Source: a virus. From it: a DNA stretch of 62,945 nucleotides. The DNA lies in the IMG/VR virus record IMGVR_UViG_3300034257_000004, positions 1 to 62,945 of that record, one strand, 5' to 3'. How positions within the stretch are numbered: the stretch's first letter is position 1; each line of letters starts with the position of its first letter. Under the pieces are notes generated by a model. The model did not search any database and had not been told where the DNA came from. It saw only the letters and a program-made list of their open reading frames with translations. The position numbers and the translations under genes are program-made. Of this stretch, positions 5,982 through 54,200 are shown piece after piece.

Positions 5982-6166
5982 TAGTAGAGAACATCGTCTA
6001 TGCACCTTGTACCAAGGACAGTCACGACGGACCAAAGGTACAACACGTCTGCTGTGACGAGGGTCACCAATACGCAGACCCTAACGGCGACGTGAAGAAC
6101 GAGGACGGCTTCGTCTGGGTGGACACGCCCAGGTGTGGCACGTGCTGTGAGAAGCATAGGCGTTAG
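5938..6166 (+). pseudogene. Cys-rich open frame without a start codon
   Basis: After the triple amber that ends the zinc-finger gene, the -1 frame stays open to TAG 6164-6166. It encodes a protein-like sequence with CCDEGH, RCGTCCEKHRR and typical codon choice for this genome. It has no ATG, GTG or TTG start. It may be a frameshifted second half of the preceding gene, the remnant of a fused zinc protein, or the product of an assembly error. Confidence 0.4.
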
Positions 6167-6210
6167 AACGAACGAGATACCAAATGGTATGTTTACAGTT
6201 CGTTCGTTCT
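6165..6210 (+). promoter_or_regulatory. Nested dyads around the -35 (operator candidate)
   Basis: An 11-bp perfect inverted repeat, AGAACGAACGA at 6165-6175 and TCGTTCGTTCT at 6200-6210, flanks the -35 box. Between the arms lies a second dyad, ATACCA-AA-TGGTAT (6177-6190). The geometry fits a repressor or activator site controlling the promoter at 6192. Confidence 0.6.
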
Positions 6211-6220
6211 GTGCTATAAT
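6192..6220 (+). promoter_or_regulatory. Strong sigma70-type promoter
   Basis: TTTACA (6192-6197), a 17-bp spacer and TATAAT (6215-6220) with TGc before the -10 make a near-consensus extended promoter. Transcription would start near 6227 and run into the gene at 6307. GGGTACAAAAC (6271-6281) lies in the leader. Confidence 0.85.
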
Positions 6221-6306
6221 GTAGAACGTGGGAAGTCACTAACCATGGACTACCAACAAGGACCCATGCTGGGTACAAAACCAACTCGGAAGGAGTTTAA
6301 CGAATC

Positions 6307-14915: not shown

Positions 14916-15384
14916 AGTCGCCTCCCTCCCACTTGCGCATGAACGTGGCCTTGGCCTCGCTCAGTTTACCACCGGCTCGTGCCGTAAGCCTCAGGGCCAC
15001 CAGTCCCGCCGAGCCTAGCTTCTTCTCCATGAAGACCTTGTAGACCGTCCTCTTGTGGAACTCCCACCCGTCTATCGGGTGTAGGTGACACGTCTTGCAC
15101 AGGGCGTCGGCGTTCCTCAGGTCGTACCTCACCACGTAGACCCCTCGACCGATGAAGTGCGAGCAGTGCAGAGCTTCGGGGTTTCGTTCGAAACTCTTGC
15201 CGCACCCTACGCAGCGCCAGCCGGCGAGTTCTCGGACGATGCCGCTGAAGACCTTGTCGCAGAGGTCGGTGTCGTACTCCTCCTCTTGACCCTGGTCTCT
15301 GCGCCTAGCTACGGCCTTTGTCCACGGCTTCCTCGGTGAAAAGCCTTTCGCCCCTTCTCGTCTTCTTAACCAGTTCCTCTTCAC
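14887..15384 (-). CDS. NinG-like recombination protein / HNH-type zinc protein
   Basis: It encodes 165 residues from GTG after GAGGA. CVGCGK (about 58-63), HCSHFIGR (73-80) and CKTCHLHP (about 97-104) recall the lambda NinG/Rap family: CxxC, a His/Phe motif and a second CxxCH. NinG-type proteins take part in recombination of branched DNA, and the overlap with the RuvC-like gene supports this. An HNH nuclease role is an alternative. Confidence 0.7.
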   Translation of the reverse strand: MKRNWLRRREGAKGFSPRKPWTKAVARRRDQGQEEEYDTDLCDKVFSGIVRELAGWRCVGCGKSFERNPEALHCSHFIGRGVYVVRYDLRNADALCKTCHLHPIDGWEFHKRTVYKVFMEKKLGSAGLVALRLTARAGGKLSEAKATFMRKWEGGDFVDSRVGSW

Positions 15385-16771
15385 CCATGGTCCTCGGTTT
15401 CACGGGCGGCTTGGTGCCGTTCCCGTTGTTGTGCCCTAGCATGTCTGGCGTCCGGAAAGTTACCAACCTACAGTTCATGTCCATAGGCTCTCGGAACTGT
15501 GGCCCCTCCCTCTGCTTCTTAACCAACAGCTCCTTCGTGTAAAAGTCTAGGCCCTCCTCGTGTGGGTCTCCGTGTAAGAACCCTACGAAGTCTGCGTCTT
15601 GTTCTATCTGTCCGGACTCCCTCAGGTCGTACAGCTCAGGTTCTCTGTTACCAGTCACGTTAGCACGACTCAGCTGACTCACCCAAATACCCGAGATCTC
15701 TCTACGCATACAGATCCCCTTCAGACCCCTAGATATACCTGACACCTCCTGTACCCTGCCGTCTCCGTGTTCTCCGGACATGAGTTGCATGTAGTCTACC
15801 AACAGGACGTCGCACCGTTTACCTAGACGTTCGTACTCTCCTAGCCAGCCGTCAACCTCCTGGATACTTATGCTAGAGTCGTCGAGCACTATAGGAACCG
15901 GACGCATGTCGCCTAGGGTCTCGAGTATCTTCTTGTACTCCTTCTCGGATATACCGGCGCTTATGTGGAACCTCTCCACGTCCGACTTGGCCGCTACCAT
16001 CCTGTCTATCAAGGACTCCCTGGGCATCTCCCTAGTCACTATGTAGACTCTACGACCGCTCTGTGCTATGTTACATGCTATGTCTAGCGCTAGTGTACTC
16101 TTGCCCATGGAAGGACGACCCGCAAGAACGTAGGTGTACCCTGGTACTAGTCCTCCGCCTATCATCCTCTTGTCTATGTTAGGGAAACCTGTAGGTATAG
16201 CGTTCGATATTCCTTTGTGAAAGAGCATGTACCGTAGAGCTATGTCGTCGTACAACTCGTCAATGCTCATCGGTCGTCTAGCGTTCTGTAGAGTACCGTG
16301 TGCCTCGGACAACTCTTGTATGATATCCTGGAACATTTTGTCCGGGTGGTCTGCTCCGTCCTGAAGAGCCGCGGCGAACTTGTAGGCCAACCGTATACCC
16401 CGCCGAGCCTTGGCCTTCTCCCTCAGGATCTCGGCGTAGGCGGTCACGTTAGTGAAGTGCGGAAGGCCGTACGTAAGCTGAGTTATGAACGTGATACCGC
16501 CGGCCTTCTCTAACAACCCGTTCTTCTTCAAGTGTTCGCCTATCACTATCGGGTTCAGGTCCTGACCTAGGTTGTTCACCTCGAGCATAGCCTGGTAGAT
16601 GTACCTATGATAGCTTATATGGAACCAGCCCGCGGGTATAAGTCTACGAGTTTGGTCTATCAACACGGGGTCCATCAGTATACCGCCCAGTATAGCGTGC
16701 TCCGCGTCGGCGTTGTGTGGCAACGACCCCTTAAGCAGGGGTTCGTTACTCTGCCTGCTCTCTGGTCCCAC
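15305..16771 (-). CDS. dnaB-like: DnaB-type replicative helicase
   Basis: This 488-residue protein has the full two-domain DnaB layout. The N-terminal helical domain carries NADAEHAILGGIL (20-32). The RecA-like domain has Walker A GRPSMGKST (218-226), Walker B VLLVDYMQLM (322-331) and SQLSR in the later motif. It is the hexameric 5'-3' helicase of the phage fork. It starts at GTG 16771 and overlaps the initiator gene, so the two are probably co-translated and act together at the origin. Confidence 0.95.
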   Translation of the reverse strand: MGPESRQSNEPLLKGSLPHNADAEHAILGGILMDPVLIDQTRRLIPAGWFHISYHRYIYQAMLEVNNLGQDLNPIVIGEHLKKNGLLEKAGGITFITQLTYGLPHFTNVTAYAEILREKAKARRGIRLAYKFAAALQDGADHPDKMFQDIIQELSEAHGTLQNARRPMSIDELYDDIALRYMLFHKGISNAIPTGFPNIDKRMIGGGLVPGYTYVLAGRPSMGKSTLALDIACNIAQSGRRVYIVTREMPRESLIDRMVAAKSDVERFHISAGISEKEYKKILETLGDMRPVPIVLDDSSISIQEVDGWLGEYERLGKRCDVLLVDYMQLMSGEHGDGRVQEVSGISRGLKGICMRREISGIWVSQLSRANVTGNREPELYDLRESGQIEQDADFVGFLHGDPHEEGLDFYTKELLVKKQREGPQFREPMDMNCRLVTFRTPDMLGHNNGNGTKPPVKPRTMGEEELVKKTRRGERLFTEEAVDKGRS

Positions 16772-17537
16772 TCTTCCACCTCTTCTCGGCTGCTTCCGAC
16801 CTCTTCTTCCTCACGTCTGTCGGTCCTTTGTTCTTTCCCTTGGACTCGTAGATACCTATGAACCTGTCTACATGAGGGTTGTCTCGACAGATCAGCTCTA
16901 TGTCGTTGTACTTGGTGTTGTTGTCATTCTCGCCCATGTTGTGAGGAGACAGCTTGCAACCGTCTATGGCGTGGAACAGCTGCTCATCCGTATAGTCCTT
17001 ACATCTGCCAGTTATCTTGGTGCGTCTCTTAGAATCTAAACTAGTCCTGGGTTTGTTCATAACCTGCTGCCAGTATTCAAAGATTCTGTTAACCCGTTCG
17101 GTCAAGTTTGTTTTTGAACTTGACATAAGTGTTTTTGTATTATGTTCTTTATCTGTAAGACTCCTTAATGAAGAACCTTGTTCTGAACCCGTGTGCACGT
17201 CGCGATCATCTATGTGCGCGCGAGGGGGATGCGCTAGAAGACGCCCGGGCGTCGTAGAAGACGCCCCCTCAAAATTCTCGAACAGTAGTTGATACTTATG
17301 TGAGCCGTTAACTCCTTTACCATCTTCTATATGCACCAGGTCGGTCTTCTGAAGTTTTCTTATTATCCTTTGGACTTGTCTCTGTAAAAGTCTAGCCTTG
17401 GTACCTAGTTCCGGTATACTTGGCGGGTAGGATATACCGTTGTCGTCCGCATTGTCTGCCAGTGCTAGAAGGATTATCAGTTCGCTACCAGTACACGGTG
17501 CAAACCTCCATACAAGATCCATCATTTTACTACTCAT
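16746..17537 (-). CDS. Replication initiator / helicase-loader-like protein
   Basis: This 263-residue protein has an N-terminal winged-helix of the replication protein type (PSIPELGTKARLLQRQVQRI, about 40-60). A linker follows, then a C-terminal domain with FEYWQQVMNKPRTSLDSKRR and VDRFIGIYES, typical of phage replisome-organiser proteins that precede DnaB. It probably binds the origin and recruits the helicase. The ATG follows AAGGA and is preceded by a ~160-base structured leader. Confidence 0.8.
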   Translation of the reverse strand: MSSKMMDLVWRFAPCTGSELIILLALADNADDNGISYPPSIPELGTKARLLQRQVQRIIRKLQKTDLVHIEDGKGVNGSHKYQLLFENFEGASSTTPGRLLAHPPRAHIDDRDVHTGSEQGSSLRSLTDKEHNTKTLMSSSKTNLTERVNRIFEYWQQVMNKPRTSLDSKRRTKITGRCKDYTDEQLFHAIDGCKLSPHNMGENDNNTKYNDIELICRDNPHVDRFIGIYESKGKNKGPTDVRKKRSEAAEKRWKSGTREQAE

Positions 17538-17563
17538 AAATTATCCTTGAAGACAGAAGTAGA

Positions 17564-17700
17564 AAGCCCTTAGTTGAGGGCTCTGGTACCCTTGGCAAAT
17601 TCACTTTTGACACACGGGCGGCATCAAAAGCAAAAGAGTTCAGAGCACCTCAACTAAAGGCTTGCCCGTAACCTTGTTCGGTTGCCACCCGAAGTTTGTG
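17564..17700 (-). ncRNA. Structured leader RNA with predicted pseudoknot, upstream of the initiator gene
   Basis: The leftward transcript from the promoter at 17707 has a leader of about 160 nt. P1 pairs 17564-17585 with 17641-17663 (21 bp, one mismatch, one bulge). P2 pairs 17604-17610 with 17624-17630 (7 bp). P3 pairs 17670-17673 with 17680-17683. The P2 loop (17611-17623) can pair with 17664-17669, directly beside P1 (6 bp), or instead with 17683-17691 (9 bp including one G-U that exists only in the leftward RNA). The exclusive pairings suggest a regulatory switch. An origin of replication is an alternative reading. I know no matching RNA family. Confidence 0.7.
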
Positions 17701-17706
17701 TCGAAT

Positions 17707-17736
17707 ACTATACACCGTAGGAGGTAATCTTGTAAA
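17707..17736 (-). promoter_or_regulatory. Promoter of the replication operon
   Basis: On the minus strand: TTTACA (17731-17736), an 18-bp spacer and TATAGT (17707-17712), preceded by AAAGG as in other promoters of this phage. The start site would be near 17700, just before the leader structures. It drives the initiator, helicase, NinG-like and RuvC-like genes. Confidence 0.75.
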
Positions 17737-43369: not shown

Positions 43370-43519
43370 CTACCAGGAGAAGCTGAGGATGGCCGCGTTG
43401 ACCACCCGCTGCAAAGCTAGTCGGCTCTCCATAGTATCCCAGGTGTGATTTACCAGCCACCGTCTGATTGCACGGTCCACCCGTGCCTGTAATCTTAAGT
43501 GGGTTTTTATGTCCAGCAT
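43370..43519 (-). CDS. Small basic hypothetical protein
   Basis: It encodes 49 residues from ATG 43519 after GAGAAAGGA. It is helical and basic with two tryptophans (RAIRRWLVNHTW). It is the first gene behind the promoter at 43650, in front of the chaperones. Unknown function. It could be a small tail or regulatory factor. Confidence 0.6.
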   Translation of the reverse strand: MLDIKTHLRLQARVDRAIRRWLVNHTWDTMESRLALQRVVNAAILSFSW

Positions 43520-43554
43520 GACGTGTATCCTTTCTCTAGTACGTAAATAGCAAA

Positions 43555-43604
43555 ACACCCAAGAGGTACCAAGGGAGTTACCCTTGCCACGGACTCTTGG
43601 GTGT
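43555..43604 (-). terminator. Leader hairpin, terminator/attenuator candidate
   Basis: ACACCCAAGA (43555-43564) and TCTTGGGTGT (43595-43604) form a perfect 10-bp stem, with CAAGGG (43570-43575) and CCCTTG (43581-43586) as an inner 6-bp stem. On the leftward RNA the outer stem runs into UUUUG. It lies between the promoter at 43650 and the gene at 43519, so it may attenuate that transcript, and it may also end readthrough from the head genes. Confidence 0.6.
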
Positions 43605-43649
43605 TCCGCAAGTAGGCTAAAAGAACCTGACCTGACATCGACCGAGACA

Positions 43650-43678
43650 AATATAGCGCGAAAGACCGAGTTTGTAAA
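43650..43678 (-). promoter_or_regulatory. Promoter of the tail operon
   Basis: On the minus strand: TTTACA (43673-43678), 17 bp, TATATT (43650-43655). The upstream AAGGGG and the GCGC before the -10 are shared with the promoter at 50845, so the two form a pair with a common, perhaps late, consensus. Confidence 0.8.
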
Positions 43679-52646: not shown

Positions 52647-54200
52647 CTACTTGAATGGTCCTTTGCTACTGCTGCCCTCGGCATCCCACGGTAGCATTAT
52701 AGAGTCTGCGTTGAACGCAGCCATAGAGGTACAGACCGCAAGGTCTATCTTCATGGAGCGTTGTCGCTTGACTATCCTTATTCTCTTACCGTCCTCGGTA
52801 GTCTTCCTATCCGCATTGTATACGTGCGTCCTTATGTCGGACTGTCCCACGTGCGCTATGCGTCTGGTGACTATCCTGTCGAGTAGTGCTTTGTCCGACT
52901 GCTCTCTTAGTACTCCCTGGGGAAACTCGGTGGTCATGACACCGGGCCACCACCTTTTGTCCGGCAGCTGACCAGCCTTCCTGAGACGAGTCATCATGTG
53001 ATGCAACTCGCGCGGATCATAGACTATCTCGCCTATGGCGTACTTTAGGCAGACATCCTTTATGTCGGACTCTATATCGTCGAAGTCTCTCTGTACCCCC
53101 TTGGCCTCCCACATCTTATAGCCCCTGATAGCTACCACGTCCTCTTTGAAAGGGTGAGGACCGGCGAGTATCATGGCGAACACATCCCCCTTGCTGGCGT
53201 ACGCTCCATCTACCGCCATGACCAACGGATCGTACGGTGTGAGCCCCGGCAGACTGGAGTCATAGCAAGCGTCCCATAGGGCCATGTCATGCAGGAAGTG
53301 TTGTACGTCGTCCTCATCCTCCCACTGAGCCTCCAGGAACACCCGACGCTCGGACTCAGTCAGTGTGGAGCCTCTGTCCTCAGCATAGTCGTCTGCCAGG
53401 TTCTCCTCGTTGTCTAGCGTGTATAAGGTCACGACCACGGCCTTGCTCTTAAACAGAGCGCGAGGATCGTCCTTCTTGAAGTGCTCCTGACCTACATCCA
53501 TCTCGCCGAACGGGTTAGGTACCCCACCAAAGAAGTCGAACAGCCAATGCTTCTTGGGAGTAGTAGTGAACCAGAGCTGTGGAGGTTCGCCCTTGGGTCC
53601 CGGTATACGGACGCGGCCTGACAGTACCTTGAGTATGTCGGCGTCGTCCTTGCGTCGTACCTCATCACCGTGCGCGAAGCTGACATTGGGACCGTGCCAG
53701 CCGGTAGGGTCGTCCATACCACCGCAGTACAGAGTGCTCAGTCCGCCGTATTCGTTGTGGAAGTGGAGCTCGAACTGCTTGGAAGGTTCCCAGTCCGTCC
53801 TCAGCCTGTAACGCTCCCTCTCTATCACGCTCTCCAGGGGACACCACCTACGGAACTCTGCCCAGAGGCTCTTTTTGAAGTGTTCAAAGTCCGGCGACAC
53901 CATGATGCCCGTCATACCGCGTCGCAAACGCTCGAGGTCCTTTATAATACCGCCGACCGACTTGCCCCCGCCCTCTCCGCCCTTTATCAGAATGTGCTTG
54001 GGTGAGTCGGAGTATATGACGAGGTCTTCGCCCCGGTGTTTCTTGGGCTTGTATGTACGACCGGTCTCCCTGTTGACGTACTCTCTCCACTTGTAGACCG
54101 GTCCTACCTCGGTAGGCGAGAGTATAGAGAGCACAGCGTCCTGGACACGCTGGCGCCCTGTCTTTACAACCGGAGGTCTGTACTGTAGGTTGGAGCTCAC
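52647..54200 (-). CDS. terL: Terminase large subunit
   Basis: This 517-residue packaging motor protein has Walker A GGEGGGKS (74-81) near the start. NVSFAHGDEVRRKDDAD includes the region of the Walker B acidic pair. The nuclease domain begins at LVMAVDGAYASKGDVFAMIL with the first metal-binding Asp, followed by the later YDPRELHHMM segment. It translocates DNA into the procapsid and cuts it. The portal gene follows directly. Confidence 0.9.
   Translation of the reverse strand: MSSNLQYRPPVVKTGRQRVQDAVLSILSPTEVGPVYKWREYVNRETGRTYKPKKHRGEDLVIYSDSPKHILIKGGEGGGKSVGGIIKDLERLRRGMTGIMVSPDFEHFKKSLWAEFRRWCPLESVIERERYRLRTDWEPSKQFELHFHNEYGGLSTLYCGGMDDPTGWHGPNVSFAHGDEVRRKDDADILKVLSGRVRIPGPKGEPPQLWFTTTPKKHWLFDFFGGVPNPFGEMDVGQEHFKKDDPRALFKSKAVVVTLYTLDNEENLADDYAEDRGSTLTESERRVFLEAQWEDEDDVQHFLHDMALWDACYDSSLPGLTPYDPLVMAVDGAYASKGDVFAMILAGPHPFKEDVVAIRGYKMWEAKGVQRDFDDIESDIKDVCLKYAIGEIVYDPRELHHMMTRLRKAGQLPDKRWWPGVMTTEFPQGVLREQSDKALLDRIVTRRIAHVGQSDIRTHVYNADRKTTEDGKRIRIVKRQRSMKIDLAVCTSMAAFNADSIMLPWDAEGSSSKGPFK

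What the first reader, a model, noticed from the sequence alone, without database searches (positions are those of the whole stretch)
17537..17736. Pseudoknotted leader RNA with two exclusive pairings in front of the replication initiator
Downstream of a TTTACA-N18-TATAGT leftward promoter, the leader can form a 21-bp stem (17564-17585 with 17641-17663) and a 7-bp inner hairpin. The loop 17611-17623 can pair either with 17664-17669, next to the big stem (6 bp pseudoknot), or with 17683-17691 (9 bp including one G-U valid only in the leftward RNA). This is the design of a regulatory RNA that could control initiator and helicase expression, or of an origin transcript. I know no RNA family with this layout.
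Basis: partly seen in the sequence, partly recalled or inferred. Interest (0 to 1): 0.82.

Follow-up and report, generated by a model that had tools for sequence, protein, structure and literature searches.

The report
Phage initiator leader with interlocked RNA pairings
The messenger RNA of a phage's replication-initiator gene begins with a long RNA hairpin whose loop can pair back to the RNA's own 5' end; the same layout, with unrelated sequences, recurs in related phages, usually with a terminator-like end, so it is probably a built-in RNA brake similar to the immunity RNAs of phages P4 and P1.

Summary
The described stems are really in the sequence, in the leftward RNA, between a TTTACA-N18-TATAGT promoter and the ATG of an O-like initiator (17537). 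P1 is 22 bp with one bulge. The leader is the strongest fold in the window (z -5.1). No Rfam family matches. The loop/5'-leader pairing is weak evidence on its own here (p 0.05-0.24 against dinucleotide shuffles).
Close relatives of the replication genes are absent, so classical covariation cannot be tested. But phages sharing this genome's terminase (39-57% identity) carry leaders of the same layout with unrelated sequences: promoter, element D (often at the transcript's 5' end), long hairpin Y with a loop complementary to D, often a U-run, then Shine-Dalgarno and ATG. Selected without reference to D, 17 such leaders show loop/5'-leader complementarity (Fisher p about 2e-4; held-out subset 0.009); control regions and control phages show none. 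A U-run of 5 or more follows 10 of 17 hairpins, against 21 of 504 background hairpins.
The P4 immunity leader (Rfam C4) has the same interleaved topology. Most likely this is an RNA attenuator that works like P4 CI/C4, though not a C4 member by covariance model. In the window itself the U-tract is weak, so translational control or RNase processing remain open.

The parts
17707..17736 (-). sigma-70-like promoter TTTACA-N18-TATAGT, preceded by AAAGG; start of transcription expected near 17701-17699
   Evidence: one of five near-identical promoters of this genome; start site inferred, not mapped
17683..17691 (-). element D (CGGGUGGCA), complementary to the hairpin loop (9 bp, one G-U); CACA at 17700-17697 extends the match
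   Evidence: p 0.05-0.24 on its own, supported by the recurring layout
17677..17693 (-). small 5' hairpin UUCGG/CCGAA whose loop GUGGCAA holds most of D
17664..17669 (-). proximal element ACGGGC, alternative partner of the loop (6 bp)
   Evidence: sequence
17564..17663 (-). long hairpin Y (P1): 16 bp + bulged U + 6 bp, inner 6 bp, apical 7-bp hairpin
17611..17623 (-). apical loop L (UGCCGCCCGUGUG), partner of D or of the proximal element
17553..17570 (-). 3' end of Y followed by a pyrimidine-rich run (AGGGCUUUCUACUUCUGU), a weak terminator-like tail (nT 4.1)
17544..17548 (-). Shine-Dalgarno AAGGA, downstream of the stem, not sequestered by Y
16746..17537 (-). O-like replication initiator (263 aa), first gene after the leader
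   Evidence: PHROG 16167, 6.4e-23; HTH_36
15305..16771 (-). DnaB-type replicative helicase, second gene
   Evidence: Pfam DnaB_C 4e-53

Best explanation
It is a cis-acting 5'-leader RNA of the initiator-helicase operon, one example of a recurring leader type in this phage lineage. Its order is D - Y5 - L - Y3, with D:L and Y5:Y3 interleaved (an H-type pseudoknot, or two competing folds). Y closes right in front of the Shine-Dalgarno and in most members ends in a U-run, so the most likely action is attenuation. When Y5 pairs with Y3, transcription stops at the U-run (or, where this is weak as in the window, ribosome entry or elongation is reduced). When the transcript's 5' end (D) holds the loop first, Y closure is delayed or remodelled and the operon is expressed. 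A stopped leader could also act in trans on sister transcripts, as CI/C4 RNA does in P4 and P1. Shown here: the structure, the promoter, the recurrence, and the statistical support for D:L and for the U-runs across the class. Inferred: termination, the direction of the switch and any trans action.
For: Structure z -5.1, strand-specific. Same layout with unrelated sequence in terminase relatives G003, G010 (two), G012 (two), G013, G016, G019, G021, G033, G041 (two), and in G024, a DnaB relative. Of 17 leaders picked without looking at D:L, complementarity of loop to 5' leader gives Fisher p 1.6e-4 to 3.9e-4, against 0.76 and 0.88 for control regions of the same loci and 0.99 for control phages. 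The held-out set alone gives 0.009. Shuffled genomes give 0-1 leaders. U-run of 5 or more after 10 of 17 hairpins against 21 of 504. Non-Watson-Crick pairs are G-U in the transcribed direction 34 to 13. In G003, G005 and G024 an interleaved element also lies in front of a replication operon. P4's immunity leader, which controls its replication genes, has the same topology.
Against: In the window the U-tract is weak (UUUCU) and D:L is not significant alone. No close homologue of this leader exists in the collections, so no base-pair covariation could be counted. Seven of the 17 leaders lack a U-run and 12 of 17 have no individually significant D:L. U-runs may partly reflect AT-rich intergenic DNA. 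The Shine-Dalgarno of the window is not sequestered by Y. No transcript data. Some members were first seen because of their D:L pairing; only the 17-leader test avoids this.
Confidence: 0.5

Rival explanations
1. 5'-end protection: D at the transcript's 5' terminus is locked into the loop of a stable hairpin, which shields the mRNA from 5'-end-dependent decay (RppH/RNase E or RNase J) and leaves the ribosome site open. No switch.
For: D begins within about 16 nt of the predicted start in the window and in 7 other members (G010 two, G012a, G013, G019, G033, G041b); only a free 5' end can thread into a closed hairpin; the pyrimidine-rich stretch before the Shine-Dalgarno would suit ribosome loading.
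Against: Does not explain the U-runs directly after Y in 10 of 17 leaders; in three members (G003, G021, G012b) D lies 46-76 nt from the start.
Confidence: 0.2
2. RNase III processing site: the 22-bp stem with internal loops is cut to give a mature 5' end, as in early leaders of T7 or the lambda N leader. The loop pairing is incidental.
For: About two helical turns of nearly perfect RNA duplex; a second promoter of this genome (43678-) has a comparable leader hairpin without D:L.
Against: Does not explain loop/5'-leader complementarity across relatives nor the U-runs.
Confidence: 0.15
3. Trans-acting immunity or copy-control RNA: the terminated leader is itself the product, and pairs with nascent leaders of co-infecting genomes, as P4 CI and P1 C4 do.
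For: Same interleaved order in P4, where Rfam C4 spans D and L; position in front of replication genes in several phages.
Against: No integrase or repressor recognised among the window genes scanned, so temperate life is not shown; no Rfam C4 match; one leader precedes a TnpB gene and one an HNH gene.
Confidence: 0.12
4. DNA-level element (origin, cruciform or protein site) rather than RNA.
For: Inverted repeats are also nearly symmetric in DNA; it sits next to the initiator.
Against: The mismatches are G-U in the transcribed direction in both window stems and 34:13 over the class; consistent place between promoter and start codon.
Confidence: 0.03

Closest known systems
P4 prophage-immunity leader, CI RNA with seqA/seqC (P4 NC_001609, minus strand 8502-8369)
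   Same: Interleaved D-Y5-L-Y3 order found by the same scan (D:L 17 bp, Y 10+9 bp); leader of the operon that carries replication genes; acts by premature transcription termination through RNA pairing (PMC4825925).
   Different: No sequence similarity; P4 shows no U-run at Y3 and uses a processed CI RNA with a second target seqC; trans action not shown here.
C4 antisense RNA of P1/P7, Rfam RF01695
   Same: Structured phage RNA whose loop sequences pair near a downstream ribosome site (PMC12197685); Rfam C4 overlaps D and L in P4.
   Different: Window and members do not match RF01695; Y here is much longer and the gene is an initiator, not an antirepressor.
repZ/Inc RNA leader pseudoknot of IncI/IncB/IncK plasmids
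   Same: Loop-to-leader pseudoknot in front of a replication initiator (from general knowledge; papers listed, not read).
   Different: There the partner lies downstream of the stem and activates translation, and an antisense RNA from the opposite strand is needed; no such promoter evident here.
HK022 put RNA
   Same: Structured RNA at the start of an early phage transcript that affects termination without a phage protein (PMC9378689).
   Different: put is two stem-loops of conserved sequence of about 70 nt, with no pseudoknot mentioned; the RNAs here share no sequence.
RNase III sites of T7 and lambda N leaders
   Same: Long imperfect hairpin in an early leader (general knowledge).
   Different: No loop/5'-end pairing or U-run known to me.

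Membership tests
C4 antisense RNA (RF01695) | Match to the covariance model at gathering score | tested here: not met
   No match in window or in class members, while P4 in the same search scores 74.9 bits;
C4 antisense RNA (RF01695) | Interleaved pairing: own hairpin plus loop sequences complementary to a site just before the downstream start codon | tested here: met
C4 antisense RNA (RF01695) | Stable processed RNA acting in trans | not testable with these tools
   no transcript data
P4 CI / attenuator leader | Termination site in the leader before the first gene | tested here: inconclusive
   Terminator-like in most class members; weak in the window (UUUCU, nT 4.1)
Known Rfam riboswitch, ribozyme or leader family | Any Rfam 15 match | tested here: not met
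   0 at gathering in the whole window; only a spurious plant miRNA hit at E 0.12 in the region
Leader class described here | Promoter, long hairpin, Shine-Dalgarno and ATG in order | tested here: met
Leader class described here | Loop complementary to the 5' leader beyond chance | tested here: inconclusive
   9 bp present; p 0.05-0.24 for this member, class p about 2e-4
Leader class described here | U-run directly after the hairpin | tested here: inconclusive
   longest U-run 3 in the window's leader
IncI-type repZ leader | Antisense RNA from the opposite strand over the hairpin loop | tested here: inconclusive
   The only + strand promoter-like matches nearby are 9/12 and lie past the hairpin in that direction

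The most novel reading that the evidence does not exclude
A previously undescribed class of self-contained leader RNA in an uncultivated phage lineage: the transcript's own 5' end competes with, or locks into, a terminator hairpin ahead of replication, TnpB, HNH and other genes. Only the topology is conserved, not the sequence, so covariance searches miss it. It would be a sequence-free counterpart of the P4/P1 immunity RNAs.
Probability: 0.4. Interest if true: 0.75.

Novelty: new variant of a known kind. Interest (0 to 1): 0.6.

Why it matters
If right, the topology of P4/C4 immunity leaders is not confined to a few enterobacterial phages but is an architecture that phages re-create with arbitrary sequence. 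It would be invisible to Rfam-style searches and would predict RNA-level control of replication in a lineage with no cultured member known here. It also gives a simple rule (5' end complementary to the loop of a leader hairpin) that can be scanned for in other genomes.

Tried and rejected
Close homologues of the leader: none in phages by blastn, none via initiator, DnaB, topoisomerase or polymerase queries in viral contigs or genomes. A single-sequence covariance model found no other member, as expected if sequence is not conserved. O-like initiators of Vibrio, Shewanella, Marinomonas, Xanthomonas and Cobetia phages abut the preceding gene and have no such leader. Set aside: G005 (A B A' B' with about 25 and 23 bp, order of the long partner reversed), G002 (GATC repeats) and several interleaved repeats inside genes. 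Leader peptide: no upstream ORF with a Shine-Dalgarno found by eye. Origin transcript: no support. Paper searches found no description of this layout.

Full report
What is there. The minus strand carries TTTACA-N18-TATAGT (17736-17707), a leader of about 163 nt, Shine-Dalgarno AAGGA (17548-17544) and the ATG (17537) of a 263-aa O-like initiator, followed by a DnaB helicase. The genome has five TTTACA-N17/18-TATANT promoters, four of them preceded by AAGG or GGGG, which makes this promoter credible. The leader folds at -63 kcal/mol, 5.1 standard deviations below shuffles; the opposite strand gives -2.4, and no other 120-nt stretch of the window ranks as high. The long stem Y is 22 bp with one bulge. 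Its apical 13-nt loop matches the 5' leader at 17691-17683 (9 bp) and 17669-17664 (6 bp), and the first four bases of the RNA (CACA) match the other end of the loop. Both non-Watson-Crick pairs are G-U only in the leftward RNA.

Is it more than chance. The hairpin is. The loop pairing in this single sequence is borderline: p 0.05 with dinucleotide shuffles of the 37-nt leader, 0.004 against random genomic 37-mers, 0.24 when the whole inner part of Y is allowed as partner, 0.14 by duplex energy.

Relatives. The window is a 62,945-base virus record. Its replication proteins have only distant relatives (about 30-50%), and no phage in the deposited collection has a related terminase at E 1e-5. Terminase relatives at 39-57% identity exist in viral contigs, mostly with other replication genes. 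Looking upstream of the G003 initiator, a relative of the window's initiator, showed a leader with a hairpin of about 30 bp whose apical loop (UUCCCACU) is complementary to the leader upstream (AGUGGGAA). A scan for interleaved inverted repeats then found the same order in other relatives: G013 (D 11 bp, Y 17 bp, just before Shine-Dalgarno and ATG), G019 (D 14 nt at the predicted transcription start, HNH gene), G012 (two leaders, TTGACA-17-TATAAT and TTGACA-17-TATAGT), G010 (two leaders, one with D:L of 19 bp before a TnpB gene), G021, and G024 (a distant DnaB relative, again just before the replication operon).

Test without choosing on the pairing. Leaders were defined only by promoter (at least 9/12), hairpin (score at least 12) and an ORF with Shine-Dalgarno within 50 nt. 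In the first 842 kb of the terminase family, 11 leaders gave Fisher p 9e-4 for loop/5'-leader complementarity; in 913 kb of other phages, 6 leaders gave 0.995. Nine further terminase relatives, fetched afterwards as a held-out set, gave 6 leaders with p 0.009, including G033, where a 21-nt D begins at the predicted start. Over all 17, p is 1.6e-4, against 0.76 for equally long stretches upstream of the promoters and 0.88 downstream. Thresholds matter somewhat (0.042 with longer hairpins only, 3.4e-5 with stronger promoters), and shuffled genomes yield 0-1 leaders. Predicted start to hairpin is 30-41 nt in 8 of 17, hairpin to ATG 12-36 nt. U-runs of 5 or more follow 10 of 17 hairpins against 21 of 504 others (p 2e-9), though intergenic AT content may contribute. 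Counted with strand-neutral scoring, G-U pairs in the transcribed direction outnumber the reverse 34 to 13 (p 0.003); some members had been found with G-U-tolerant scoring, so this is supporting only.

Mechanism. The order promoter - D - Y5 - L - Y3 - U-run - Shine-Dalgarno - ATG is that of an attenuator. D emerges first and can wind around L because it is at or near the free 5' end; this happens before Y3 is made and would delay or remodel Y. If D is occupied or absent, Y closes and polymerase stops. This step is inference. For the window the U-tract is weak, so the effect may be pausing or translational.

Comparison. The same scan on phage P4 finds D:L of 17 bp (8502-8486 with 8441-8425) interleaved with Y (8487-8478 with 8378-8369), exactly where Rfam reports C4 antisense RNA. 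P4 uses CI RNA from this leader to stop transcription of its own replication genes (PMC4825925), and C4 RNA of P1/P7 pairs around a downstream ribosome site (PMC12197685). The window and its relatives are not C4 by covariance model. I therefore say it works like C4/CI, with moderate confidence, and is a new variant rather than a member.

Limits. No close homologue, so no base-pair covariation; no transcript data; 12 of 17 leaders have no individually significant D:L; host unknown.

Noticed in passing
window 43500-43678 (-): A second promoter of the same type (TTTACA-17-TATATT) is followed by a long leader hairpin (12 perfect bp, 16 bp with extension, 43550-43609) with UUUUGCUAUUUA after it, before a 49-aa ORF ahead of the tail genes; no loop/5'-leader pairing.
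   Followed up: partly
window 6165-6225: Inverted repeat GAACGAACGA...TCGTTCGTTC overlapping a TTTACA-N17-TATAAT promoter (6192+): looks like a repressor operator.
   Followed up: no
window 17235-17266: Two exact 12-nt direct repeats TAGAAGACGCCC around a GCCCGGGCG palindrome inside the initiator gene: possible iterons, as in lambda O.
   Followed up: no
L073 18549-18750 (G010): TnpB-like gene (396 aa) preceded by TTGACA-17-TATGAT and a pseudoknot-capable leader with two stems of 17-19 bp; the first stem's 5' strand starts at the predicted transcript start.
   Followed up: partly
L065 5772-5930 (G005): Two interlocked inverted repeats of about 25 and 23 bp between an SSB-like gene and a replisome-organiser operon; one arm is itself a palindrome.
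   Followed up: partly
L106 6240-6430 (G024): 27-bp leader hairpin before a replication operon; two separate upstream elements (GUGAAAAC, GAAGUAUG) are both complementary to its loop, and the Shine-Dalgarno AAGG lies inside the stem.
   Followed up: partly
L069 9690-9800 (G009): Nearly perfect 23-bp hairpin (GGGGUGCAUCGGGCGCGGAUGCA) inside an ORF near the DnaB operon.
   Followed up: no
window 52647-54200 (-): Terminase with no tblastn match at 1e-5 among 50,697 deposited phage genomes although relatives at 39-57% occur in metagenomic viral contigs: a lineage without members in that collection.
   Followed up: partly
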